The notes under the pieces were generated by a model. It was given only the letters and a program-made list of their open reading frames with translations. It searched no databases and was not told the DNA's origin. Both the position numbers and the translations under genes were made by a program. 64,000 nt of DNA from Natronoarchaeum philippinense. Lineage in GTDB: Archaea; Halobacteriota; Halobacteria; Halobacteriales; Natronoarchaeaceae. Positions 12,110-61,402 of the stretch are shown here, piece after piece (within the stretch, counting starts at the first letter, position 1; each line of letters opens with the position of its first letter). The stretch lies in assembly GCF_900215575.1 (NCBI RefSeq), contig NZ_OBEJ01000001.1, positions 248,001-312,000 of the forward strand. Direction: 5' to 3'.

Positions 12110-13102
12110 ATGGATCATTTATTCGAACGCATACGACGGTTACGGACTGGTAAACAGGACGACGAGCCGGAGGTACGTACCGACGGCGGCGTCGCCACGG
12201 ACACGTCCAGCAGCGGCCTTCGCGACCGGTTGAACACCGACTTCTTCCAGTCGATGCCGTTCTGGCTGCCGCCGTTCGCTCTGGTCGGCGTGTTCGTCTA
12301 CGGCGCGATCGGGTGGAACTTCCTGATCTCGCTGACGGACTACGAGAACTTCGGCCGGGTCGATTACTCGTCGTTGGACTTCGAGATGTACGTGCGGGCG
12401 TTCAACGACTCCTCGTTCATCCAAGCGACCCAGAACACGGTCGTGTTGCTGCTTGGTTTCATCGGCGTCTGCATGACTGTCGGATTGCTCCTGGCGATCC
12501 TCGTCGACCGGAACATCCGGTTCGAGAACACGTTCCGGACGATCTACCTGCTGCCGATGAGCCTGTCGTTCGTCGTGACGGCGCAGTTCTGGCTCTGGAT
12601 GTACAACTTCAACAACGGCGTGGTAAACACCGCCCTCGGCCTGTTCGGCCTCGGACCGTTCCAGTGGTTCGGGAACCCGGATCTGGTGTTGCCGGCGGTG
12701 ATCTTCGCGCTCGTGTGGCAGTTCAGCGGGTACGCCATGGTCGTGTTTCTGGCGTCGCTGCGCGCGATTCCCAGAGAACACTACGAGGCGGCGCGTGTCG
12801 ACGGCGCCAGCACGGTCAAGATGTACTGGCGCGTCATCATCCCGCAGCTGAAAAACGCTGTCGTCAGTGCGCTGGTCGTGCTGATGGTGTTCGGGCTCAA
12901 AGCCTTCGACTTCCTGTACGCCATCTCCGGCGGATATCAGCCCCCGAACGGGTCTGACATCCTTCCGACGCTGATGGTTCGGATGGCGTTCCAGCGAACG
13001 CAGTGGGCCTATGGCTCTGCCATCGCGATCCTGCTGTTCCTGCTGGCGTTGGGCATCATCACACCGTACCTCTACTACCAGTACAAGCAGGGAACGATAT
13101 GA
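12110..13102 (+). CDS. Sugar ABC transporter permease (MalF/UgpA type)
   Basis: The 330-residue inner-membrane component has an acidic/polar N-terminus of about 45 residues and six predicted helices. The ATPase-coupling EAA loop reads EAARVDGAS near residue 226. It begins 16 bases after the binding-protein gene and overlaps the second permease by four bases (ATGA), so the genes are translationally coupled. Confidence 0.9.
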   Translation: MDHLFERIRRLRTGKQDDEPEVRTDGGVATDTSSSGLRDRLNTDFFQSMPFWLPPFALVGVFVYGAIGWNFLISLTDYENFGRVDYSSLDFEMYVRAFNDSSFIQATQNTVVLLLGFIGVCMTVGLLLAILVDRNIRFENTFRTIYLLPMSLSFVVTAQFWLWMYNFNNGVVNTALGLFGLGPFQWFGNPDLVLPAVIFALVWQFSGYAMVVFLASLRAIPREHYEAARVDGASTVKMYWRVIIPQLKNAVVSALVVLMVFGLKAFDFLYAISGGYQPPNGSDILPTLMVRMAFQRTQWAYGSAIAILLFLLALGIITPYLYYQYKQGTI

Positions 13103-23354: not shown

Positions 23355-23429
23355 GGGCGCTTAGCTCAGTTTGGACAGAGTACTTGGCTTCGGACCAAGC
23401 TGTCGCGGGTTCAAATCCTGCAGCGCCCA
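23355..23429 (+). tRNA. tRNA-Arg (anticodon UCG)
   Basis: The 75-base gene folds as a cloverleaf: acceptor GGGCGCU paired with AGCGCCC plus discriminator A, a D arm with AGCUCAGUUUGGACAGAGU, and anticodon stem CUUGG/CCAAG. The anticodon loop CUUCGGA gives anticodon UCG, and the T arm reads CGGGUUCAAAUCCUG. No intron is seen and CCA is not encoded. Its 3' end coincides with the start of the foreign-looking region, so it is the likely integration target. Confidence 0.95.
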
Positions 23430-46915: not shown

Positions 46916-49819
46916 GTGAGATTTTACGTTCCTGAGTGGGACGACGCGGTCGATTCCCACTACGATTTCCGACACGACGAACTCTCTACTCTCGACCGTC
47001 AGGAGCGGGATCTAGATTACATCTGGGATATTTTCGAGCGCGACACAACCCCGATCGATGGCGTGCTAATTTCGCGTGAACAAGTTGAAGAGACGACTCG
47101 CAAAGCAAATCGTCTCGCCGAGTACGGGGTCTACGATGACCCGGTGTTGTCCGTTCCAGAATGGCTTCCTACGATCAGCGACTGCGGCGCGTGGGGCTAC
47201 AAGTCACTCCCGTTCCCTCCGTACGGGAACGCCGAGATGCTTGACTTCTACGAAACGCTGGAGGTCACAGTCGGCGTTACTATCGATCACCTCGTTTTGG
47301 GTTCGGGGAAAGACAAGGGTCGTCTGTACCTCGACGAACGCGCCTTCCATACCGATTTCAAGAAGAGTGACATCCCAGACGCACTGACTGACGTCGTCGA
47401 TTTGATGGTCGACGAGTGGCCCAACGAATGGCCTACTTACGTCGAGGAGTACGAACCGTCCATCTGTACTCAATCGAAGAAGGAGGTCGAGGCCTTTGCT
47501 CCAGAAGACTTCCAAGGCGACGTCGATACGGTACTTGCGCGATTGGCTCGTGATCCCAGAGCGGTGTACCGAGAGGACGACGCAGCATTCCGCTACGAGC
47601 TTACTCTCCGGAACGCTCAGGAGATGTACGACCTGTACCACCGAGGTAACTACCCGTTCCGGCTAATGGTAGCGATCCAGGGCTGGAACCCCGAGACGTA
47701 TATCGAGGCCACGGAAGAAGTGCTCGACATTGGATACGATTATCTCGGTATCGGTGGCGTCGCTGGCAGTCCCATCCACGACGTCAGGCAAATCGTGAAG
47801 GGCGTCGGAAAGACTGTAAAGGAGTTTGAACGCGAGAATAACACTCGCATTGACTCGCACGTCTTCGGGTTTGCGAAGAGCGAAGGATTCGAGACGGTCG
47901 GTCGATCGGGGATGACCAGTTTCGATAGTGCGAGTATGCTCCGTTCGGCATGGACAGGAGGGCAGAATTACCGGCTTGACAACAACGAGCGATACGACGC
48001 GATTCGGGTTCGTTACCCATCTAACCGCGATTCTCTTGCAGAGGCCGTGGAGAAGTCCCTTCGAGGCCGCGAGACGCTAGTTGCGTTGAGAGCCTTCGAT
48101 TCTGAGGAACCCATCGTTGACGCGCTCTATGAGTGGGAGAAGAAAGCAGAAAAGGTCCTTCCAGCCACTCGAGAATATCTACGTGAACACCGTCACGACG
48201 AGCAATACGACGCTTCGCTACTCCAAGAAGTCGAAACCGCTTTTAGAGACGATTTCGAGTACGCCCGAGAGCTCCAAGCGAGCTTCAGCGACAATCTTCG
48301 AGGAAAGCTGGTCAAACTTCTTCGGAAAGACGATCCCGAAGACCCGGTTAGCTTCGAAGAGTATTCTGATTTACTAACCGTCGCACAGCAAGAGTTCGAG
48401 CCTTTCCCGCGTATGACTACCATCCTTGAAAACGACGATCCTGAAACTACTTATGACGCGATTTGGACCGTCGTTCGAGATTACGCGACGTGGATCGGCG
48501 ACGAAGACCTCTTAGAAGAGTACCAGCGTACACTGCAAAACCGACCTTGGGAGAAGTGCGATTGCTCGATCTGTACCGAGAACAGTATCGAGGTCTGTAT
48601 CTTCCGTGGTAACGACCGCAACCGTCGACGTGGATTCCATAACACCCGACGGTTCTACGACGAGTTCACCGACGAGCTACCGAAAATCCTCATCGGAATT
48701 CGAGGTACGGCATCTCTGAACGGCTACGAAACTATCGAGGACTACCTTCGAGCCGAGCATCCAGACTTCTGGCAGCAGGTGCATGATCTCCCAGTTGCCG
48801 AAGTTGGCGTTTTGGATGCCGGCGGTGTACGGGAATGGTGGGACGAGACCCCCACCGGCGTTTCGCTTGCCCGGAGTCGCATGGCTGAAAACCTTGGCCA
48901 GCAAGCAGAGCGATACCAGAAGGTGTTCCTCCACACACCTGACGGAGAAATCGACGAGCACATCGTAGATGCCGTGGAAGAAAGCAACTGCACAATCCAG
49001 ACGTTCCAAGATCCATCGAAACTGCGCCAGAATGCTTTGGAAGCGTGCGGAGAGAATTACATAGCTGGGGATGACTTCCTGCCTCACCCACCCAAAATCA
49101 ACGTCCAGGATGGGCTCGACATTTTGGTTATCGACCAATGTTCTGGCTCGAAGGACATCCCCGAAGGTGCACCCGTCTTCGATGATAAAGAGACGCTCCA
49201 ATTCTCGAGAGAAGAGCTCTTGGAGCGCGATAATGTTCCCGGAATCAACGCCAAGGATCTCTACACGGGCCGACAGCAGGAGTTCGTGAAGGAAGCGGTT
49301 AGACGGCTCAAAGGAGAAGGTCACGATGTCGAGCGGTACTTCATAAGTGCAGGCTTCGGCCTCGTTTCCGAGGACGAACCGTTGCCGCCATATGAAGTGA
49401 CGTTCAGTTCGATGGGCGTTGCCGACATCAGGGAGCGATCTAAACAACTCAGCATTCAGGCCGACTTAGAGCAGGTGCTGAACGAGTCAGACTACGATGT
49501 AGTCTTCTTCACTCTCGGGAAGGATTACTACACCAGCATTGACATCGATAATATGGTCCAGAACGTTCGTTCTGACCGTATTGGAGTCGTCTTCAACCGG
49601 GAACTCGTCGACGACCAGTTCGATAATATCGTGTCAGTGCCTGCCCGCACAGAAGACGCGAAAAACCACGGCACAATCGTAGTAGGGTTGAAAGGACACT
49701 ATATGAAGAATTTCGCACACCGTATAGACAGTGTCGAATCACTGGAACCTGAAGCGATTGAGGGCCTCTGTCGTCGTGTAGAAGAGGAACCTACTCAGAT
49801 GGCCTTCGAGAAGTATTAG
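46916..49819 (+). CDS. Long TGT-like enzyme with YaaA/DUF6884-like C-terminus (DpdA-related)
   Basis: The 967-residue protein (GTG start; a stop lies just upstream in frame) has a tRNA-guanine-transglycosylase-like part over residues 1-580. SDCGAWGY at 88-95 stands where TGTs have DSGGF (Asp89 as base), TSFDSASMLRSAW gives a nucleophile at Asp337, and CDCSIC (548-553) with His575 forms the zinc site. A large helical insert lies at about 370-540. The C-terminal domain (about 735-967) has DQCSGSKDIPEGAP and YFISAGFGLVSEDEPL, as in YaaA/DUF6884 proteins. Such enzymes swap guanine for 7-deazaguanines. The shape fits DpdA-type DNA enzymes better than ArcTGT. Confidence 0.7.
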   Translation: MRFYVPEWDDAVDSHYDFRHDELSTLDRQERDLDYIWDIFERDTTPIDGVLISREQVEETTRKANRLAEYGVYDDPVLSVPEWLPTISDCGAWGYKSLPFPPYGNAEMLDFYETLEVTVGVTIDHLVLGSGKDKGRLYLDERAFHTDFKKSDIPDALTDVVDLMVDEWPNEWPTYVEEYEPSICTQSKKEVEAFAPEDFQGDVDTVLARLARDPRAVYREDDAAFRYELTLRNAQEMYDLYHRGNYPFRLMVAIQGWNPETYIEATEEVLDIGYDYLGIGGVAGSPIHDVRQIVKGVGKTVKEFERENNTRIDSHVFGFAKSEGFETVGRSGMTSFDSASMLRSAWTGGQNYRLDNNERYDAIRVRYPSNRDSLAEAVEKSLRGRETLVALRAFDSEEPIVDALYEWEKKAEKVLPATREYLREHRHDEQYDASLLQEVETAFRDDFEYARELQASFSDNLRGKLVKLLRKDDPEDPVSFEEYSDLLTVAQQEFEPFPRMTTILENDDPETTYDAIWTVVRDYATWIGDEDLLEEYQRTLQNRPWEKCDCSICTENSIEVCIFRGNDRNRRRGFHNTRRFYDEFTDELPKILIGIRGTASLNGYETIEDYLRAEHPDFWQQVHDLPVAEVGVLDAGGVREWWDETPTGVSLARSRMAENLGQQAERYQKVFLHTPDGEIDEHIVDAVEESNCTIQTFQDPSKLRQNALEACGENYIAGDDFLPHPPKINVQDGLDILVIDQCSGSKDIPEGAPVFDDKETLQFSREELLERDNVPGINAKDLYTGRQQEFVKEAVRRLKGEGHDVERYFISAGFGLVSEDEPLPPYEVTFSSMGVADIRERSKQLSIQADLEQVLNESDYDVVFFTLGKDYYTSIDIDNMVQNVRSDRIGVVFNRELVDDQFDNIVSVPARTEDAKNHGTIVVGLKGHYMKNFAHRIDSVESLEPEAIEGLCRRVEEEPTQMAFEKY

Positions 49820-49916: not shown

Positions 49917-50951
49917 ATGCTGTACAGACAACGGAAACTCGATCTTCCCCACGGAGAACTGGATACACCAGTTCTCTTCCCAGTTAGGAACGTGGGGAAG
50001 CGATCGAGTGATAACACTCCCAAGTACGTCGGCACTATCCCGGAGTTTTCCGCGGCGATGATTAACGCTCGATCGATACGGAACCGGGACCCGATGTGGA
50101 ATCGGCTAACGAATGGTGTGACCCTCCGCGAAGAGATGGATGTTCCAGAGGATACCATCATCTTCGCTGATAGCGGTGGATTCGATTTTTCTGAGCAGGA
50201 GATCGACACTACACCGAAAAAGACGATCAAAACTCAACGGAAATTAGATAGCGACATACACGGAACAATTGACATTCCTTTATCCAGAGAAAACCGTGCA
50301 GCAGAGAACCAACGGCGTATCGACCGAAGCATCGAGTTTGCTCTCGAAGCAAGTGATCTCCATACTGGTGATGCTCTTCTCTTTGCAAGCGTTCACGGGT
50401 ACGATCCAGAAACGATTCGTAACAATATCCAGTACCTGGAGAACCACGGAGATTTTGACGGATACGCACTCGGGAGTATGGTCCCAATCCGGACGGACTA
50501 CAAAAAGGTAACAAAGCTGGTACTGGCTGCAAGAAATGCGACAAAGAAGCATCTACACGTTTATGGGCTCGGTGGATTAGTCTATCAGCCACTTTTACTT
50601 TATCTCGGTGTCGATAGTTTTGACTCGTCGGCGTTCATCAGAAGTGCCGGCAATCGTAACTACTTGATACCTGGTTTTGGAGGGGAGGAGCTCCACAACA
50701 TCGAGGACTTGGATCGGTTGCCTTGCCCCTGTCCGATCTGTGGGCAACGGAGTTTAGAAGACATCCGGGAAGATCGAACCGCGCTCACTCAACATAATCT
50801 CTGGGCGCTTGCAACGGAGCTTCGGCGATTCAAATACATAGCTGAGTCCGATCGAGACGTCGAGAATTATCTCGATCTTCGGTTCCAGGGCAACGAAGTC
50901 ACTAAGAGAGCCTATGAAACCGCAAAACAGCAAGTGAGGAGGCTCACATGA
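49917..50951 (+). CDS. Short TGT-fold enzyme (DpdA-like base exchange)
   Basis: The 344-residue protein keeps the transglycosylase core: ADSGGFDF at 84-91 (Asp85 as base), YALGSMVPIR at 183-192, HVYGLGG and GVDSFDSSAF at 231-240 with nucleophile candidates Asp233/Asp236. The zinc site is C270, C272, C275 and H293 (CPCPICG, then TQHNLWAL). It lacks the PUA and C-terminal domains that ArcTGT uses to bind tRNA, so tRNA is an unlikely substrate. A GGAGG lies five bases before the ATG. It overlaps the next gene by ATGA. It probably inserts preQ0 or a relative into DNA. Confidence 0.75.
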   Translation: MLYRQRKLDLPHGELDTPVLFPVRNVGKRSSDNTPKYVGTIPEFSAAMINARSIRNRDPMWNRLTNGVTLREEMDVPEDTIIFADSGGFDFSEQEIDTTPKKTIKTQRKLDSDIHGTIDIPLSRENRAAENQRRIDRSIEFALEASDLHTGDALLFASVHGYDPETIRNNIQYLENHGDFDGYALGSMVPIRTDYKKVTKLVLAARNATKKHLHVYGLGGLVYQPLLLYLGVDSFDSSAFIRSAGNRNYLIPGFGGEELHNIEDLDRLPCPCPICGQRSLEDIREDRTALTQHNLWALATELRRFKYIAESDRDVENYLDLRFQGNEVTKRAYETAKQQVRRLT

Positions 50952-51844
50952 GTGACGAACGAGCGACGATCCGTCCAGTCACACTGAGCCGTCTGGTCGA
51001 ACTCACACACGCCTGTGCAGACGACGAGAAAACGACAGAGGATCTCGAGACTGCCCTCGATGTAAGTCATCGGCGAGCGCGAGAAACAGTCCTAGAAGCG
51101 AAACGGATCGATCTTCTGGACGAACGCGAGTCAGATGATGTTTCCTTTTACGAGACCACTGCTATCGGTGAAGCATTCTTAGAGGCGATTCAAGATGAGG
51201 ACTGGCAGCAAGTGAGTTCAATCCTCGCGACTCGTAGCCCTCACTACGGAGCATTTCTCGAGGTTCTGGAGCAGATCGAACCGACAGACCTCGATGCCCT
51301 TCTGGAGAGCCTGGAAGAAGACCAGAAGTATACACCCTATTCGTTCAACCAGACCGGCATAGAGGTCGTCGGTGACTGGGCTGAGCGATTAGGTCGCGTT
51401 CAGCGGAATGCCTTCACTGGGAGCTACTATTTGACCAGCCACTCTAGCATTCCGGATAACTTCCCTTTCGTGGTGCTTGACGCTTATGACAACCTCGAAC
51501 AGACGGCTGGCATAGATTTGCGACAGCGCTATCTGTCGATACCGCAACTTCGGGAAGAAGTCTGTGAACGAGTTGGATGTTCACGTGAGGGTTTCGACGA
51601 GGCGCTGGTCGCTCTTTGCCAGCAGAACGTCGGCAAGCTCGAGCTGTCGGGAGCCCCGATGGATACGGAGGCTAAAGATTCTGCTCTCGGGATAAAGCAA
51701 ATTTCCTTGGCAGATGAGGGAACGTTGGTCTCCACGTCGCAATCAACACAGCAGGTGATGTCTGGCGTCGAATTGTACGACAAACAATACTACTACCTCG
51801 CGGTCCACGACCGCGACGTCACGTTCCACCAGGAGGATACATAA
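50948..51844 (+). CDS. Winged-helix protein of the transglycosylase operon
   Basis: The 298-residue protein begins with a winged helix (about 10-75: EDLETALDVSHRRARETVL then LDERESDDVSFYETT). Helical segments and a second winged-helix-like unit follow near 200-250 (SIPQLREEVCERVGCSREGF). Its C-terminal strand pair (GVELYDKQYYYLAVHDRDV) is unrecognised. It overlaps the transglycosylase before it and the ATPase after it, so the three are made together. A DNA-binding adaptor for the ATPase is the simplest reading. I know no named homologue. Confidence 0.6.
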   Translation: MSDERATIRPVTLSRLVELTHACADDEKTTEDLETALDVSHRRARETVLEAKRIDLLDERESDDVSFYETTAIGEAFLEAIQDEDWQQVSSILATRSPHYGAFLEVLEQIEPTDLDALLESLEEDQKYTPYSFNQTGIEVVGDWAERLGRVQRNAFTGSYYLTSHSSIPDNFPFVVLDAYDNLEQTAGIDLRQRYLSIPQLREEVCERVGCSREGFDEALVALCQQNVGKLELSGAPMDTEAKDSALGIKQISLADEGTLVSTSQSTQQVMSGVELYDKQYYYLAVHDRDVTFHQEDT

Positions 51845-53001
51845 TGTCCGACGCATTCGACATTTCAGACGAACAGCAAGACTACTCACAGTACGGTCTC
51901 GAGGCCAATCCGTTTCCGTACAGTCCGGTTCCCGCAGAGGACCCCGAAATATACTGTGGTCAACAGCACGTCTCCGAAAAGATTAGTTCCACAGTCTCTA
52001 CGATGCTTTCGACTGGAAAGTCCAAGCATCTCGTTATTACTGGGAAATACGGCAACGGAAAGTCGCATACGCTCAAATATACCCGCTCGCTGTTACGGGA
52101 CCGGGACGATGTCGTCGTTGGGTACGTTGCTCAACCGGGCGAAGGCTTTCTCGACATCTATCATGAGTTCGTGTACGACCTAGGTTTCAATCGAGTCCAA
52201 GAGTTGGCCTACGAGTACCTCGCCTCGGTTGCTCGTGACGTCACAGATGCGAATCCAATTAGCGCGAGCGCAATGAAATCGCTCATCGATGAGGGAGAAA
52301 TCCTTCTCTCTGAGATCGTCCCGGAGGCAGTTCGACGATTAAGCGATGTGACTCACTTTGCCGACTTTGCTCGTGCGATCGTACACATGGTGTACGAAGA
52401 CACCAACCTCTATGCTTGGCAGTGGTTGACCGCAGAGGGTATCCGGTATGAGCAGCGCAAGGAGATGGAGATCCACAGCGCACTCGATGACGATACGATG
52501 GGCGTCCGGGCGTTTACCGCTTTCAAGAATATGCTACTCGAGCTCGGTTATACTGGCGTATTCGTTTTCGTCGACGAGTTCGAGAGTATCGCCCGTCTCA
52601 GCCCAAAAAACGAGCAGGCTACGCTCAACAGTATTCGACACCTGATGGACCAGAATAGTTCCGGGCTGTGTATGTTGTTTGGCTGTGCTCCCGAAGTCTG
52701 GCAAGACGTCATGAGTGAGTATCATGCTTTTAGCGAGCGAATCGGAGAGGAGGTCGCTCTGAAACCCCTCACAAACGAGCATCTGAACGATCTGGTATCA
52801 GACTACCTCAGCCGAGAGCGCAATGGGCCAAACGAAGATTCTTCAATAGACCCGTTTACTGATGAAGCGTTGGACGTGATTCTACAACGTTCTCAGGGTA
52901 ACGTTCGCCAGGCCCTGGCTATCTGTAGCCGCGTGCTGGACTCTGCTATTGAGGAAAGCCGAGAGCAGGTCACACCTGAATTCGTTCAAGAATCGATGTG
53001 A
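51844..53001 (+). CDS. AAA-type ATPase, BrxD/DUF2791-like
   Basis: The 385-residue protein has an ANPFPYSPVP lead-in, Walker A GKYGNGKS (67-74), Walker B VFVFVDEFE near 239-247 and a sensor-2-like GNVRQALAICSRVLDSA near 350-366. The fold resembles Orc/Cdc6- and TniB-like ATPases and the BREX protein BrxD (DUF2791 family). It follows a winged-helix gene with a one-base overlap. Clamp loading or target scanning for the modification enzymes is plausible but inferred. It lacks the C-terminal winged helix of true Orc1/Cdc6. Confidence 0.6.
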   Translation: MSDAFDISDEQQDYSQYGLEANPFPYSPVPAEDPEIYCGQQHVSEKISSTVSTMLSTGKSKHLVITGKYGNGKSHTLKYTRSLLRDRDDVVVGYVAQPGEGFLDIYHEFVYDLGFNRVQELAYEYLASVARDVTDANPISASAMKSLIDEGEILLSEIVPEAVRRLSDVTHFADFARAIVHMVYEDTNLYAWQWLTAEGIRYEQRKEMEIHSALDDDTMGVRAFTAFKNMLLELGYTGVFVFVDEFESIARLSPKNEQATLNSIRHLMDQNSSGLCMLFGCAPEVWQDVMSEYHAFSERIGEEVALKPLTNEHLNDLVSDYLSRERNGPNEDSSIDPFTDEALDVILQRSQGNVRQALAICSRVLDSAIEESREQVTPEFVQESM

Positions 53002-54200: not shown

Positions 54201-54581
54201 CTATAGGTTTTTTGTCGCCTTATCGCTGACCGCCTCGCGCGTCGCTTTCATAGCCTCCGGTGCGGCGGTTCCAAGTCCAAGCCGAAGCGCAAGCCGAATA
54301 ACCTCGCTCCGATCAACGTCCTCCTGGTCGACATCGAGCTCGTCCTGAAGACGATGACCGACATCATCCAGATGCTCGGGATGGTTCTCGAGAGCGCGAA
54401 CTAATGCTGCCATTGGCCCGTCCCAGACACTGACGACCTTCTGCTGATCTCCTTCGTCGATTTTCTCCAGTTCTTCAAGAATCGCGGTTTTGAGGTCATT
54501 CCGTTTCTGTTCTGCACTCACTTCGTCCAATCGGTCTCCTTGGCTGGTCTGCTGTTTCAGCTCTTCAATTTCGTCATCCAT
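54201..54581 (-). CDS. Small ParA-partner protein, probably centromere-binding
   Basis: The 126-residue acidic helical protein starts two bases after the ParA stop, so the two form an operon. N-terminal helices (DEIEELKQQTSQGDRL, KRNDLKTAILEELEKI) are followed by a DRSEVIRLALRLGLG segment that resembles a ribbon-helix-helix unit. It has no ParB fold. Small RHH-like proteins often replace ParB in type Ib partition cassettes. I infer that role from operon context and from the matching palindromes on both sides. Confidence 0.55.
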   Translation of the reverse strand: MDDEIEELKQQTSQGDRLDEVSAEQKRNDLKTAILEELEKIDEGDQQKVVSVWDGPMAALVRALENHPEHLDDVGHRLQDELDVDQEDVDRSEVIRLALRLGLGTAAPEAMKATREAVSDKATKNL

Positions 54582-54583
54582 GG

Positions 54584-55435
54584 TTAGTTACCACTGACGC
54601 GTTCTATGAGCGCTTCAGCGTTGGTACGATATGCGTCACGTGCTTTACGGGCTGTTCCACTCGGATTGTCCAGCGCAAAGATTGACTGTCCCTGCTCGGT
54701 TGCGTTCCGGATGTCTTGCGAAGAGGGAACATACTTTGGCGCGATTGCTCTAGGGTACTCCTCGCGATAGGCATCAAGATACTCGCCAGCGAGTTTCGTA
54801 CGTGAGTCAACTTTGTTCGGGAGGACCATCGCCAAGTCGACATTGATGTTGAAGTTGGCCTCGACCTTCGCGAGATCGTCACGTAACGCGCCAACTTGTT
54901 CGGCCTCGAACGGTCCCATTTCGACGGGGGCGAGCACGTTCTGTGCTGCCCAGAGTCCGTTGTAGGTCACGTTCGTCGTCATTCCTGGCAGGTCGATCAG
55001 TACGGCGTCGTAGCCAAGCGGGTCAATGTAGTCGTCAAGGAATTGCTTGAACCGGGAGTACCGGTCGGAAGCATCGTCGATGTTCGCAAGTTCCGCGTCA
55101 AGCGTATCCAGTCCAGGATGTGCCGGGATTAGATCGACGCCCTCGTCGGTCTGCACGATGAGTTCCTCAACAGCCTCGTCGCCGAGCTTTTCGACGATCG
55201 TCTCCCAGGCGTCGTCGAAGACTGTCGAAATGTTCGGCCAGGCGTCGTCGTTCTCGATGGCGGCCTGTGTGCCCTGCCAGACGCCGAATGATTTTGCGAG
55301 GTCTCCCTGTTTACCGGCAAGATCGATGAGCAGGACGTCGTGTCCTTGCTCAGAAAGTGCGACGCCGAGATGTGCGATACTGGTGGTCTTTCCTGTTCCT
55401 CCTTTATCGAGGAAACTGGCCACTCTTGCGCTCAT
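54584..55435 (-). CDS. ParA/Soj-family partition ATPase
   Basis: The 283-residue protein has the deviant Walker A KGGTGKTT (12-19) and a Walker A' strand DVLLIDLAGKQGD. Walker B is YDAVLIDLPGMTTNV. It has no N-terminal DNA-binding domain, as in type Ib ParA proteins. It drives plasmid or element segregation with a partner protein and a centromere. A palindromic site at 55460-55478 covers its promoter region, which fits autoregulation. Its presence marks the region as plasmid-derived. Confidence 0.9.
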   Translation of the reverse strand: MSARVASFLDKGGTGKTTSIAHLGVALSEQGHDVLLIDLAGKQGDLAKSFGVWQGTQAAIENDDAWPNISTVFDDAWETIVEKLGDEAVEELIVQTDEGVDLIPAHPGLDTLDAELANIDDASDRYSRFKQFLDDYIDPLGYDAVLIDLPGMTTNVTYNGLWAAQNVLAPVEMGPFEAEQVGALRDDLAKVEANFNINVDLAMVLPNKVDSRTKLAGEYLDAYREEYPRAIAPKYVPSSQDIRNATEQGQSIFALDNPSGTARKARDAYRTNAEALIERVSGN

Positions 55436-56793: not shown

Positions 56794-57621
56794 TCAGCTT
56801 CTGTCAAGCATGTATGCGAACGCTTCGAGAGTATTCTGACCTTCCTCGGTTGCTTTGACGTATTTGTTCCGGCCTTTCTTGTACGTCTCTACGTACCCGT
56901 CTTCTCGAAGCGAGTCGAGTAAGTGAGAGTCGAGCAGGCGGTACAGGCCGCGTGTGTCATCGCCTTCATGATCAGCGAGAGGATCAATCCCTGCGGCGAC
57001 TGCAAACTCGATACACTCCTGTTTCGTTACCGGACCCTCGTTGACGATATACTGGAGAAGCTTGAGCGGGGCATAAGAGGGCGCTTGGATTGGATACGTT
57101 GGAAGGCGAGAGATGCTGGTCACATTTTTCGCCACCGGTACCTCTTTGTCTTGCCCGTATTCTGAGGCACTCACGTAGATTGGTTCAGCACCGCTCGTGA
57201 CCATACAGGCGATCATGCCTGCAATCGCGGTGACCTTCCCTCCCGAGGCGAGATTGACATAGACCTCGTGGTCTTGGTTGGCTTGAATGAGTTCAGCAAC
57301 TGTTCTCAGGGTATCATACAAGTCGAAGATATTGCAGATGTTGTCATCGTCAACATCAATCCCAGCACCTCTCAAATCATCGTGAATGTCCTCATAGTAC
57401 CCCGGCCGCTCATCGGGGTCATCCCCTTTGTGGTAGATGAGATACACGCGATCTGCGCGCATTCGAATCGCTGGGACTGTGACACGCTCGTATTCGTACC
57501 CCAGCGGGACAATGTGGACACGATCAGAAACATTCAGGCCCTCGAACGAGACTGACTCCTCTTCCGTGCGCGCATTTGGGCTCTCACCTGAAAAGGTAGT
57601 CTTGTCCTCGTTACTGCTCAT
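56794..57621 (-). CDS. CARF-like HTH regulator of the HFX_2341/DUF6293 family
   Basis: The 275-residue protein has an N-terminal Rossmann-type sensor domain (DRVHIVPLGYEYERVTVPAI, VYVNLASGGKVTAIAGMIA) and a C-terminal winged helix (about 190-270, with GPVTKQECIEFAVAAG and GYVETYKKGRNKYVKAT). This matches the haloarchaeal HFX_2341 (DUF6293) regulators, whose sensor belongs to the CARF/WYL-linked signalling group. It has no close partner gene and is the second CARF-type regulator of the element. It is divergent from the DUF2797-Argonaute operon and may regulate it. The effector is unknown. Confidence 0.75.
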   Translation of the reverse strand: MSSNEDKTTFSGESPNARTEEESVSFEGLNVSDRVHIVPLGYEYERVTVPAIRMRADRVYLIYHKGDDPDERPGYYEDIHDDLRGAGIDVDDDNICNIFDLYDTLRTVAELIQANQDHEVYVNLASGGKVTAIAGMIACMVTSGAEPIYVSASEYGQDKEVPVAKNVTSISRLPTYPIQAPSYAPLKLLQYIVNEGPVTKQECIEFAVAAGIDPLADHEGDDTRGLYRLLDSHLLDSLREDGYVETYKKGRNKYVKATEEGQNTLEAFAYMLDRS

Positions 57622-57755
57622 AGGCGGGTTTGTACGGGACAGATTATGAATAATGCGGTTATTCTGGTAACGTCGTTACAATACGCAATATCAGCAACAA
57701 TGCTGTTTTGTCAGCGTAGTATTTTTGTATCCTTTCTTCGTGTCACGTCTAGTAG

Positions 57756-58751
57756 ATGCAGAATAAGCAGGAAACGTTCGCTTCCTTCAGTTCCCCTCGG
57801 GTCGCAGCGGACGCCGCCTCGATAACTGGAGTCATCGACTTCGTCTCCTGGTACAACGACGAACCCGCGCTCAAGTTCGCGCAACCGGACGTACCGATCC
57901 ATCAGCGTCCGGACCTTCCCCTATCCGAACTCGTGGGGACAGAGATTCGAGTGACAATCTCTGAAGAACAATACTGTACGCTATGTGGGGAACCAACTGA
58001 AACTTCCCCTTGTCCAGACTGCGCCGGAGAGCCGCCTCATGCGACGTGTGTGATGCATCCTGCGACCCACTGTGAGTACAAAGCCTGCCCATACCCAGAC
58101 TACAAACAACGGTCGTGCTCGCATACGCATCTCGTCTACCTCGCGGCAACCGACCGGATCAAGGTTGGCATCAGCCGAGAGTCTCGAGCACGCTGCCGCT
58201 GGGCCGAACAGGGTGCCTCTCACGCGATCCCCATCGCTCGTGCGCCTAACCGAAAGGCAGCAGGGATTATCGAGAAGGCCATCGGCGAGGAGTGGCCGCA
58301 GCGCCGTCGCCACGAGTGGTACCAGCCGATGGAAAACAGCGTCGACCAACTCACAGATGACGCCCTCGCTACGGCGGCCTTGATCCCGGAAAAGCTCCAA
58401 CCATGCTACTTCTGGGCTGACAGCGATCGGCAGGACGTTCGTGATGCTGTCGTCGATGTACCTTCCATCGAGGCGCCGGCCCTTGACCAGCGACTGACGA
58501 CTAACCAATACTCGTTGTCAGCGGGAGAGTCGCGGGAGGGCCGAGTGCTCGGGATTCGCGGCGGACTGCTGGCGACTGACTCGTTCGTCGCTAACCTCAA
58601 AGGCCACAGTAGTCACGTGCTCACGATCGAGACTGACGACCCATTCTTTGAGGAGACCGATCTGCGCATTCAGCCGAACGAAGAGGATCATTCGCAGGAA
58701 CGCGAACAGCCATCTGAGTACATCCCCGCCACCAAGGAGGGTGCTGCATGA
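57756..58751 (+). CDS. DUF2797 (GIY-YIG-like) zinc protein, Argonaute partner
   Basis: The 331-residue protein has an N-terminal zinc-binding region (CTLCGEPTETSPCPDC and further Cys/His in CEYKACPYPDYKQRSCSH, about 75-125). The DUF2797 core follows: HTHLVYLAATDRIKVGISR, then WAEQGASHAI and AAGIIEKAIGEEW, which resembles the GIY-YIG nuclease fold. The tail (about 250-331) is variable. The stop overlaps the Argonaute start by four bases (ATGA), so both are made together. Host DUF2797 proteins are chromosomal singletons, so the pairing is notable. Nuclease activity is unproven for the family. Confidence 0.7.
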   Translation: MQNKQETFASFSSPRVAADAASITGVIDFVSWYNDEPALKFAQPDVPIHQRPDLPLSELVGTEIRVTISEEQYCTLCGEPTETSPCPDCAGEPPHATCVMHPATHCEYKACPYPDYKQRSCSHTHLVYLAATDRIKVGISRESRARCRWAEQGASHAIPIARAPNRKAAGIIEKAIGEEWPQRRRHEWYQPMENSVDQLTDDALATAALIPEKLQPCYFWADSDRQDVRDAVVDVPSIEAPALDQRLTTNQYSLSAGESREGRVLGIRGGLLATDSFVANLKGHSSHVLTIETDDPFFEETDLRIQPNEEDHSQEREQPSEYIPATKEGAA

Positions 58752-61402
58752 CTGAGTTTTCCTACGACATCATCGAAGACGAATACGGCGAAAAATTGGC
58801 TATCGAGTTCGAATACGACGAGGATGTCAAGAATCGCTTGAAAGGTCTTTCGTGGGACACGACTCACCGTGCCTGGGACCCAGATGTCGGCGCGTGGACG
58901 ATTGAACTGACGCCAGCGAGTATCCAGGCATTCGAAGAAGAGTTCGACGTGACCGTCCCCGATGAATACAGGTCCGGCGAGATCACTGGTGGTGACAACG
59001 AAGAAACTGACACGGGAGTCGACTCTGGTACAACTGACTTCCAGCCAGCAGCTGAGAAGAGTAGTGCCACCACCAGCGATAGTACAGGATCCGACTACGA
59101 CGAGGACGCAGCTATCGAAGATGCCCTCGTTGACACGCGCGACATTTCGGCCAGCGGGCATGGGTTAACCACGTATCCTGCCGCGCAGCGAATCGACGAC
59201 GTTCCTGTCCACGTCTATAACGTCCTCATCACGACAGGGGATCAAGCGCAGTCGGCTGCCGAGCGCCGTCGGCGAGCGTACTCCGCTATGCGTGAAATCC
59301 GTGAAGAGTACGAGGATCAAGCACCACCGATGGCGTACGCTGGCGACCTCGAGGTCGTGTCCCTCCACCCAATCCCCGGCGATGGTACTCTCGAAAGCGA
59401 GGACGTTCGCGAGCTCAAAGAGGCGGGAAAGCGAACGCTAGAGTTGTCTAACCAAGCCGAGCGTGCACAAATCCAGCGCCTCGTAGAGGAAGCGTTCAAA
59501 CACCGTGTCGCCGACCAGGATTTCATTGTCCACGGCATGCACAAGATTCTCGAAGGCGAGCCCGTTCCCATCCAAGCTGGAACTGGAAATTTCCGCTTGC
59601 ACGAGCGCTTCGACTGCGCCATTACCGTCGCATCGTCAGGACAGGTCTACCTCCACGTGAACCCCAAGACGCGTGTCCAAACCGACTATACGCTCGACAA
59701 ACTCGAGAACCATCGACTCTATCCCGGGCTACGACTCGTCACGACCTACAATGGGCGTGGGTATCGACTCGGCCGCGTTCAGTCTGAGAGGGCTCGCGAT
59801 CCGACAATCGACGCCGAGACAAGTGTCGTCGACTACCATCGAGATGACAATCCGCTCGTCGACGACAAGACAGTTGAGCGAATCGACAGCGCGAACCGCC
59901 GCGTCGTTACTGCATACCCTATGGGTTCCGGTGGAAAACAGACCTTCCCTCAAGAGTTGCTAGCCCTCCAAGGACACACCGCGAATCTCGCAAACTTCGA
60001 CGGCGATTTTTGGGCGGAAGCACAGCCGAAGATGCGCCGTTCAGCATCCGCTCGTGTCGAAGACGCCGTGGAGTTCGCTCGGCAAGTCGGTGACGTTCCC
60101 TTCGACGGGACTACCCTTTCCTTCCCCGCTGACGCACCACTCTTCGCTGGCGACTCTCATTTTCGTGTCGAACAACTGTACGAGATCGACGCCGAGATTC
60201 TCAAGTTCGCCAACGGCCGTCTTGGGTCGCATCCGAAGGAAGTCGGCCAGAAAGGTGTCTACAAACCGCCTGCGTCGTTCAACGTCCTTTACGTCTATCC
60301 GCAGCAATTGGAAGGCGACCAAGCCGATTCATTCTGGGACACGTTCTCGCGGAAGCTCAGGTCCATAGGTGCTGAACCGGACAGCCGATCGGACATTACG
60401 TTTGATCCGACGCCGAAAAGCGACGGACCAGGCGACGTCGACATCCAAGTTGGTCGCCAGATTTCGAGTGACCACGAGTATGATGCCGCGTTGGTGGTTC
60501 TTCCTCCAGAAGAGGGCGCGCTGATCTCGTTCTACCAGCCCTACGACGAGCTTAAGGAAGTTCTCGCCGAGAAAGGACTCCACTCCCAGATGATCGATCG
60601 GAAGTCGATGAATGAGCTTGGCTACCACCAGAATATCGCTCTCGGGTTAATCAGCGCAGCTGGCGGAATCCCGTTCACCGTGGAAGGCTCGTTGCCAGGC
60701 GATGCCGATCTCTACCTCGCGTTTGATGTCGGTCAGTATTTCGACGACGATGACGATGGTCTCCAAGACGGAATTCGCGTCGGCGCGTCCGTGACCGCGA
60801 TCACGAACGAAGGCGCGGTTCTCGGGTACGCCCACACAGGCCCGCAAGCAGGTGAACGCATTCCTGCATCGGCACTCCGCCGGATCGCCAGACAGTCGCT
60901 GTTAGGGTACGAAGAGCGCCGCGGCGACGCGCCCGACCATATCGCTATCCATCGCGATGGCTTCATGAACGATCCGATTGAGCCGGCTCTCGGGTTCCTT
61001 GACGAGCGCGGTATCTCCTACGATGTGGTCGAAGTACGCAAGCAGGCACCCGCCCGGATCGTCAAGCAGGAGGGTGGATTCGCGACTCCTGATAAGGCGA
61101 TCGCCTGCATCAACGACGAACAACACCTCGCATATATCGCGACGTATGGCCAGAAAGAACCGCTTGCCAAGGGCACAACTGGAACACCACGACCGATCAC
61201 GGTTGAGCGCAAACATGGAGACACAGACATCGAGACGCTCACACGACAGGTGTATCTCCTCTCGCAATGCCACATCGGCGTCGCGAACACGACGACGCGA
61301 CTACCGATCACGACAGCCTACGCAGACCGCGCGGCGACCGCGGCAGCAAAAGGACATCTCCCATTGACAACGAACTTAGAGACAGGTATCGGCTTCCTCT
61401 AA
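58748..61402 (+). CDS. ago: Long prokaryotic Argonaute, NgAgo-like, with HARP-like N-terminus
   Basis: The 884-residue protein is clearly related to Natronobacterium gregoryi Argonaute over its N-domain, PAZ, MID and PIWI parts. The catalytic tetrad is complete: Asp660 (FDVGQ), Glu703 (QAGERI), Asp737 (IHRDGF) and Asp860 (TAYADRA). NgAgo's equivalents are at 663, 704, 738 and 863. The first ~75 residues differ. Instead of NgAgo's OB-fold they read like a HARP unit (LAIEFEYDEDVKNRL, AWDPDVGAWTIEL), followed by a disordered linker to about 135. It probably uses nucleic-acid guides to cut invading DNA or RNA. It is coupled to the DUF2797 gene. Confidence 0.9.
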   Translation: MTEFSYDIIEDEYGEKLAIEFEYDEDVKNRLKGLSWDTTHRAWDPDVGAWTIELTPASIQAFEEEFDVTVPDEYRSGEITGGDNEETDTGVDSGTTDFQPAAEKSSATTSDSTGSDYDEDAAIEDALVDTRDISASGHGLTTYPAAQRIDDVPVHVYNVLITTGDQAQSAAERRRRAYSAMREIREEYEDQAPPMAYAGDLEVVSLHPIPGDGTLESEDVRELKEAGKRTLELSNQAERAQIQRLVEEAFKHRVADQDFIVHGMHKILEGEPVPIQAGTGNFRLHERFDCAITVASSGQVYLHVNPKTRVQTDYTLDKLENHRLYPGLRLVTTYNGRGYRLGRVQSERARDPTIDAETSVVDYHRDDNPLVDDKTVERIDSANRRVVTAYPMGSGGKQTFPQELLALQGHTANLANFDGDFWAEAQPKMRRSASARVEDAVEFARQVGDVPFDGTTLSFPADAPLFAGDSHFRVEQLYEIDAEILKFANGRLGSHPKEVGQKGVYKPPASFNVLYVYPQQLEGDQADSFWDTFSRKLRSIGAEPDSRSDITFDPTPKSDGPGDVDIQVGRQISSDHEYDAALVVLPPEEGALISFYQPYDELKEVLAEKGLHSQMIDRKSMNELGYHQNIALGLISAAGGIPFTVEGSLPGDADLYLAFDVGQYFDDDDDGLQDGIRVGASVTAITNEGAVLGYAHTGPQAGERIPASALRRIARQSLLGYEERRGDAPDHIAIHRDGFMNDPIEPALGFLDERGISYDVVEVRKQAPARIVKQEGGFATPDKAIACINDEQHLAYIATYGQKEPLAKGTTGTPRPITVERKHGDTDIETLTRQVYLLSQCHIGVANTTTRLPITTAYADRAATAAAKGHLPLTTNLETGIGFL

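What the first reader, a model, noticed from the sequence alone, without database searches (positions are those of the whole stretch)
58748..61402. NgAgo-like Argonaute with an intact DEDD tetrad and a HARP-like domain in place of the OB-fold
D660, E703, D737 and D860 match NgAgo's catalytic residues closely. NgAgo begins with an OB-fold single-strand-binding region, but this protein starts with a segment like the HARP domain of annealing helicases (residues about 10-70) and a disordered linker. HARP units bind branched or single-stranded DNA. The swap suggests that the N-terminal module helps open or anneal DNA for guide capture and is replaceable in haloarchaeal Argonautes.
Basis: partly seen in the sequence, partly recalled or inferred. 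Interest (0 to 1): 0.8.

Follow-up and report, generated by a model that had tools for sequence, protein, structure and literature searches.

The report
NgAgo-type Argonaute with helicase-type front module
A salt-loving archaeon carries a close cousin of the debated genome-editing protein NgAgo in which the usual single-strand DNA-binding front end has been replaced by a small domain otherwise seen on viral DNA helicases, and both proteins turn out to share an overlooked partner gene.

Summary
The ORF is real (884 aa) and is a catalytically intact long prokaryotic Argonaute: D660, E703, D737 and D860 align with CbAgo/CpAgo and with NgAgo, which was recovered here as L064 (887 aa; R40, D663, D738). 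Its N-terminus is not the OB-fold of its relatives. Residues 1-77 form a compact, constrained ββαββα module, found on only four Argonautes. The module's best relatives are N-termini of UvsW/XPB-like helicases in halovirus contigs and one haloarchaeal genome (43-50% identical). Pfam HARP does not match and similarity to the solved HARP domain is not significant, so "HARP-like" holds only as a resemblance. The tree and OB-to-OB profile matches favour one replacement of an ancestral OB module. Beyond the finding, every Argonaute examined in the NgAgo clade (15/15, NgAgo included) has a dedicated DUF2797 paralogue directly upstream; it is absent beside 15/15 members of the other OB-bearing clade. 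DUF2797 has zinc-binding cysteines and GIY-YIG-like motifs. Ten of 14 assessable loci also lie beside Mre11/Rad50/NurA/HerA genes. No paper in the library mentions DUF2797 with Argonaute. DNA capture by the module and any DUF2797 nuclease activity are inferred, not shown.

The parts
58748..61402 (+). Long pAgo, NgAgo clade, 884 aa
   Evidence: PADLOC pAgo PDLC02391 1185 bits over residues 120-884; Pfam Piwi; CpAgo/CbAgo E about 1e-38
58748..58978 (+). N-terminal helicase-type module, residues 1-77 (HARP-resembling ββαββα)
   Evidence: AF2 pLDDT 87; 43-50% identical to N-termini of SF2 helicases L077, L078, L037; dN/dS 0.04-0.14
58979..59122 (+). Acidic, poorly conserved linker, residues 78-125 (approximate)
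   Evidence: 31% D/E, 33-65% identity among the four relatives, dN/dS 0.16-0.31
59123..61399 (+). N-PAZ-MID-PIWI core, residues 126-884 (start approximate)
   Evidence: PADLOC profile spans 2-742 of 742 from residue 120
60725..60727 (+). Catalytic D660
60854..60856 (+). Catalytic E703
60956..60958 (+). Catalytic D737
61325..61327 (+). Catalytic D860
57756..58751 (+). DUF2797 partner, 331 aa: zinc cysteines and GIY-YIG-like motif (Y128, K136, G138, R144, R148, H156, N165, E173)
   Evidence: PF10977 E 1.6e-32; upstream of every NgAgo-clade pAgo; invariant residues; own clade 100/100
58748..58751 (+). 4-nt stop/start overlap (ATGA) of DUF2797 and Ago, suggesting coupled translation
   Evidence: same -4 overlap in all four HARP-type loci and several OB-type loci
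56794..57621 (-). Divergent CARF-winged-helix regulator (HFX_2341/Csa3-like)
   Evidence: PF19810 2.5e-41, PADLOC CARF; kept beside the operon in L002 and L001, not Halocatena
57622..57755 (.). 134-bp divergent intergenic region between CARF gene and DUF2797-Ago operon
   Evidence: coordinates; sequence

Best explanation
This is a two-gene DUF2797-Argonaute locus of the NgAgo clade in which the ancestral N-terminal OB-fold was replaced once by a DNA-binding module taken from a halovirus-type UvsW-like helicase. Shown: the anatomy, the intact active site, the module swap, the conserved partner. Inferred: the Argonaute is a guide-directed DNA nuclease used against mobile DNA; the N-terminal module does the same job as NgAgo's OB module, namely holding single-stranded or branched DNA (replicating, resected or invading DNA) close to the guide-loading core, so that DNA with such structures is preferred for guide capture and targeting; DUF2797, a zinc-binding GIY-YIG-like protein made together with it, trims guides or cuts targets. 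The module is a substrate-choosing front end and not part of the catalytic engine, which is why it can be exchanged.
For: DEDD intact. Module relatives sit in front of SF2 motors: L037 carries the module, then UvsW_N, then helicase; L077 has the module in the same place. The module does not match the OB modules while the two OB groups match each other (hhalign probability 92.7); the OB profile's best PDB hits include archaeal SSBs, weakly. Tree: HARP-type four form one clade, sister to the OB-bearing NgAgo group, 100/100 for both nodes, with a second OB clade outside. Purifying selection on the module. In NgAgo the R40C change, in the OB module, weakened T7 protection more than the catalytic double mutant (PMC9040764). 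DUF2797 upstream in 15 of 15 NgAgo-clade loci, same strand; absent at 15 of 15 other OB-clade loci; forms its own clade apart from the core copy that 115 of 116 haloarchaea have. Mre11/Rad50/NurA/HerA genes beside 10 of 14 loci; NurA averages only about 1.3 copies per genome.
Against: No nucleic-acid binding shown. The module is acidic (27% D/E, 9% K/R/H), as usual in halophiles, but not an obvious DNA binder. Module fold has no significant PDB match. DUF2797 structure prediction failed (pLDDT 29), so GIY-YIG is motif-level only. The window genome has no Mre11/NurA cluster near the operon. MID motif lacks its fourth lysine, so guide chemistry may differ. OB2 monophyly is only 67/87.
Confidence: 0.5

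Rival explanations
1. The module is a protein-protein docking domain (for a replisome, helicase or the DUF2797 partner) and not a DNA-binding domain; its presence on helicases reflects shared recruitment, not shared DNA binding.
For: Strongly acidic module; weak SMI1/KNR4 edge match at residues 54-103; conserved W/H/T patch could be an interface.
Against: Relatives stand in front of SF2 motors where substrate-recognition domains usually sit; NgAgo's counterpart at this position is an OB-type module.
Confidence: 0.25
2. The module is a true HARP domain (PF07443 homologue) bringing fork-binding and strand-annealing behaviour to the Argonaute.
For: Same order of elements and motif (hydrophobic strand, Y, helix ending in K, R-x-aromatic-D, W); hhalign places it in that register on 4o66.
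Against: No PF07443 match at E up to 10, none in G000; 4o66 ranks 302 among about 17,300 scored sequences, the rest its own shuffles; 4o66 not among the fold matches shown, which does not exclude it.
Confidence: 0.2
3. The N-terminal module is a recent passenger fusion with no function in the Argonaute.
For: Rare (four Argonautes), from mobile-element proteins.
Against: Kept intact in four different genera; dN/dS 0.04-0.14, close to the core and below the linker; same 4-nt overlap with DUF2797 in all four.
Confidence: 0.05
4. DUF2797 next to the Argonaute is only a neighbour or a regulator (zinc-finger DNA-binding), not a functional nuclease partner.
For: GIY-YIG fold unproven; weak PHROG hit to a transcriptional regulator, E 0.21; core DUF2797 has unknown function.
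Against: 15 of 15 linkage across several families, separate paralogue, ATGA overlaps, invariant putative catalytic set.
Confidence: 0.3

Closest known systems
NgAgo (Natronobacterium gregoryi Argonaute; here L064)
   Same: Same clade, about 38% identity, DEDD tetrad, YKQ-A MID motif without the fourth lysine, DUF2797 directly upstream
   Different: NgAgo starts with an OB-type module (R40 lies in it); this protein has the helicase-type module; 42-nt gap to DUF2797 instead of an overlap; no CARF gene adjoining
Long pAgos with extra N-terminal DNA-binding domains (OB-fold, Schlafen AlbA_2, lambda-repressor-like; Ryazansky et al. 2018, PMC6299218)
   Same: Extra nucleic-acid-binding module ahead of the N domain
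   Different: The module type here is none of those listed there; GIY-YIG gets no mention there and no held paper joins DUF2797 and Argonaute
N-terminal module of halovirus and haloarchaeal UvsW/XPB-like SF2 helicases (L077, L078, L037)
   Same: 43-50% identical over about 75 residues, same position at the protein start
   Different: There it precedes an ATP motor (in L037 with a UvsW_N domain between); here an Argonaute
HARP domain of SMARCAL1 (PF07443, PDB 4o66)
   Same: Similar motif order and position next to a DNA-processing engine
   Different: No significant sequence match; extra β-hairpin start and a longer W-x-x-T-H-R loop here
CbAgo/CpAgo
   Same: Closest solved structures over residues 280-865, same catalytic tetrad
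   Different: Alignment leaves the extra N-terminal module of this protein unmatched; CpAgo keeps the MID lysine that aligns with A637 here

Membership tests
Long prokaryotic Argonaute | N/PAZ/MID/PIWI span | tested here: met
   PADLOC PDLC02391 positions 2-742/742, 1185 bits
Long prokaryotic Argonaute | DEDX catalytic tetrad | tested here: met
   D660 E703 D737 D860
Long prokaryotic Argonaute | guide-directed nucleic acid cleavage | not testable with these tools
   needs biochemistry
NgAgo clade | groups with NgAgo on the core tree | tested here: met
   100/100 node joining HARP-type and NgAgo group
NgAgo clade | DUF2797 gene directly upstream | tested here: met
   15 of 15; this feature was found here, not taken from literature
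NgAgo-type architecture | N-terminal OB-type module | tested here: not met
   no match to the OB modules; ββαββα model
Canonical MID 5'-phosphate motif YKQK | all four residues | tested here: not met
   Y599 K603 Q614 present, fourth lysine is S/A in the whole NgAgo clade
HARP domain PF07443 | profile match above cut-off | tested here: not met
HARP domain PF07443 | fold as in 4o66 | tested here: inconclusive
   4o66 not in the listed fold matches; hhalign P 0.28 in a plausible register
UvsW-like helicase N-terminal module (unnamed) | sequence homology over the whole module | tested here: met
   43-50% identity, tblastn E 2e-22 to 8e-21 in the candidate set; 7.2e-17 in G235
DUF2797 PF10977 | profile match | tested here: met
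   E 1.6e-32, 113.6 bits against cut-off 25
GIY-YIG nuclease superfamily (partner) | GIY-YIG fold and catalytic residues | tested here: inconclusive
   motif-level residues invariant; structure prediction failed; only DUF2797 matched in Pfam

The most novel reading that the evidence does not exclude
NgAgo and its relatives are one half of an obligate two-component DUF2797-Argonaute system: DUF2797 is a GIY-YIG-type nuclease that makes or loads guides (or cuts the bound target), the exchangeable N-terminal module decides which DNA structures are sampled, and the long dispute over NgAgo activity comes partly from studying it without this partner.
Probability: 0.22. Interest if true: 0.92.

Novelty: new variant of a known kind. 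Interest (0 to 1): 0.62.

Why it matters
NgAgo's activity has been contested for years and its N-terminal module is among its least understood parts. A natural relative in which that module was replaced by a helicase-type domain suggests that the front end is a separable substrate selector and gives a ready-made domain-swap experiment. The unrecognised DUF2797 partner, present beside NgAgo itself and every examined clade member, makes a concrete and cheap test possible: assay NgAgo with and without it.

Tried and rejected
HARP by Pfam, by PDB profile search (only ubiquitin-like and Kelch noise), by shuffles and hhalign. SMI1/KNR4 (SUKH) edge match (E 0.002-0.03, below cut-off): covers the module's last helix and linker only, dropped. 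Foldseek on PDB gave nothing below E 0.4, and VIA-align nothing above Z 4.8. BFVD: uncharacterised halovirus and phage proteins at E about 1e-3 to 1e-2, one annotated DUF3560. DUF2797 model with three sequences failed, not used for fold search. Viral contigs gave no relative of the whole pAgo or of DUF2797. T5orf172 members were too few in haloarchaea for a profile test of GIY-YIG. Pfam PF02171 over the own genome rang nothing in the six-frame screen although the protein itself passes, a sensitivity effect. I first took the 28-31% tier for the NgAgo tier; numbering of L064 showed NgAgo to be in the DUF2797-linked tier, and the notebook was corrected. The notebook's '10 of 13' should read 10 of 14, and its '0 of 7' should read 0 of 6.

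Full report
What is there. The ORF at 58748-61402 (+) encodes 884 aa. It is a long prokaryotic Argonaute: PADLOC's pAgo profile PDLC02391 covers residues 120-884 end to end with 1185 bits, Pfam finds Piwi, and the best solved relatives are CpAgo and CbAgo at E about 1e-38.

NgAgo itself was recovered. A search of 391 haloarchaeal genomes gave 57 with a match. The protein in L064 has 887 aa with R40, D663, E704, D738 and D863. PMC9040764 made NgAgo mutants R40C and D663A/D738A, so L064 is NgAgo or a near-identical copy. It shares about 38% identity with the window protein.

The N-terminal module. Residues 1-77 are shared by only four Argonautes: the window, Halorhabdus amylolytica (L002), a Natrialbaceae MAG (L001) and Halocatena salina (L006/L058). 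A model of residues 1-80 has mean pLDDT 87 and the order β4-11, β14-21, α25-32, short helix 36-39, β42-44, β49-53, α56-66. Outside Argonautes the module heads an SF2 helicase with a UvsW_N domain in a haloarchaeal genome (L037) and UvsW/XPB-like helicases in two IMG/VR contigs (L077, L078), 43-50% identical. Shorter relatives lie in plasmid-like and viral ORFs (L038, L039, L041, L079, L080). The invariant core in alignment A2 is Y13 G14 Y23 K32 L34 W36 T39 H40 W43 D46 W50.

Is it HARP? Not by the tests available. PF07443 does not match the protein at E up to 10 or the genome. Against the sequence of 4o66 the module profile scores 2.1 bits, rank 302 among about 17,300 scored sequences, all others shuffles of it; hhalign gives P 0.28, although in the register expected from motif order. 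PDB fold searches are uninformative. The honest label is 'helicase-type N-terminal module resembling HARP'.

Is it a swap? The other N-extended haloarchaeal pAgos form two groups, OB2 (11, with NgAgo) and OB3 (20). Their N-terminal modules match each other by profile (probability 92.7, E 4e-7) and not the window's module. Their joint profile's best PDB hits are 2kbn (named only 'conserved protein') and then archaeal SSBs, at E 0.1-0.3, suggestive only. Ryazansky et al. reported OB-fold N-termini in eight long pAgos (PMC6299218), and NgAgo's fifth domain is called RepA elsewhere (PMC10908814). On the core tree the four form a clade (100/100), sister to the OB2 group (100/100 for both together), with OB3 outside and pAgos without extension as outgroup. 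One replacement of an ancestral OB module is the simplest reading; independent OB gains in OB2 and OB3 are not excluded. The module is under purifying selection (dN/dS 0.04 and 0.14) and the linker less so (0.16 to 0.31).

The partner. DUF2797 (57756-58751) ends 4 nt inside the Argonaute start. A DUF2797 gene lies directly upstream on the same strand in 15 of 15 members of the NgAgo clade, NgAgo included (42-nt gap), and in none of 15 OB3 loci. Nearly all haloarchaea (115 of 116) have a DUF2797 gene; the Argonaute-linked copies form a separate clade (100/100) whose main subgroups mirror those of the Argonautes. Invariant residues are C74 C77 C86 C89 C98 C106 C111 C121 H123, then Y128 K136 G138 R144 R148 H156 N165 E173. 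I read the second set as GIY-YIG-like, but the fold could not be tested. No paper in the library holds DUF2797 and Argonaute together; most subscription papers are not held, so this is not proof of novelty.

The neighbourhood. A CARF-winged-helix gene is divergent at 56794-57621 and is kept in three of the four loci. Mre11, Rad50, NurA or HerA-like genes lie within about 10 kb in 10 of 14 assessable loci, in four sequence lineages and in different arrangements, but not in the window genome, NgAgo's, G202 or Halocatena; there is no match at six OB3 loci. NurA occurs about 1.3 times per genome, so by my arithmetic chance proximity is about 1%. Islands attract such genes, so the link may be indirect. 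In haloarchaea these proteins are thought to resect DNA ends (general knowledge), which would parallel the reported CbAgo-RecBCD link mentioned in PMC9040764.

Mechanism. Shown: anatomy, intact catalytic residues, swap, partner. Inferred: the module captures single-stranded or branched DNA and biases guide capture and targeting, as NgAgo's OB module may do; R40C in that module weakened T7 protection more than the catalytic double mutant. DUF2797 as a nuclease is inference. The MID motif has lost its fourth lysine throughout the clade, so 5'-end preference should be measured and not assumed.

Verdict. A real and informative variant of a known kind.

Noticed in passing
window 29658-53001: Defence-type island: two giant DEAD helicases (DruE/DpdJ/DrmA-like), a PLD-like protein, DpdA-like 46916-49819 and a TGT-family protein 49917-50951, then a BrxC/D-like ATPase 51844-53001: a probable 7-deazaguanine DNA-modification (Dpd-like) system.
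   Followed up: partly
window 23355-23429 and 24000-64000: tRNA-Arg followed by a drop in G+C from about 0.61-0.68 to 0.52-0.60, suggesting an island integrated at the tRNA.
   Followed up: no
window 54201-55435: ParA-like partition ATPase with a small partner gene, suggesting plasmid ancestry of this part.
   Followed up: no
L058 12001-14649 (Halocatena salina NZ_CP096020.1): Public annotation starts this Argonaute at locus base 12541, about 180 codons late, so the helicase-type module is missing from the database protein; a BREX-like cluster lies downstream.
   Followed up: yes
G121:C35:19993, G254:C1:2535204, G320:C5:3397, G180:C4:51159: Short fragments 73-89% identical to the window Argonaute, two with a stop inside: likely remnants of degraded copies in other haloarchaea.
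   Followed up: no
L066, L074, L098: In these OB-type loci the N-terminal OB part lies in a different frame from the Argonaute core (and L098's end is split): frameshifts, pseudogenes or sequencing errors.
   Followed up: no
L078 4995-6155: The helicase reading frame turns into an intein-like sequence right after its DEC motif where L077 continues as DECHRTS.
   Followed up: no
L059 7775-9608 and 11-4293: In the G373-type loci an AAA/winged-helix protein and an unknown 239-aa protein precede DUF2797-Ago, and an MrfA/MrfB-like helicase-exonuclease pair follows.
   Followed up: no
L102-L115 and L075: Mre11/Rad50/NurA/HerA-like clusters beside most NgAgo-clade loci, in at least three arrangements.
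   Followed up: partly
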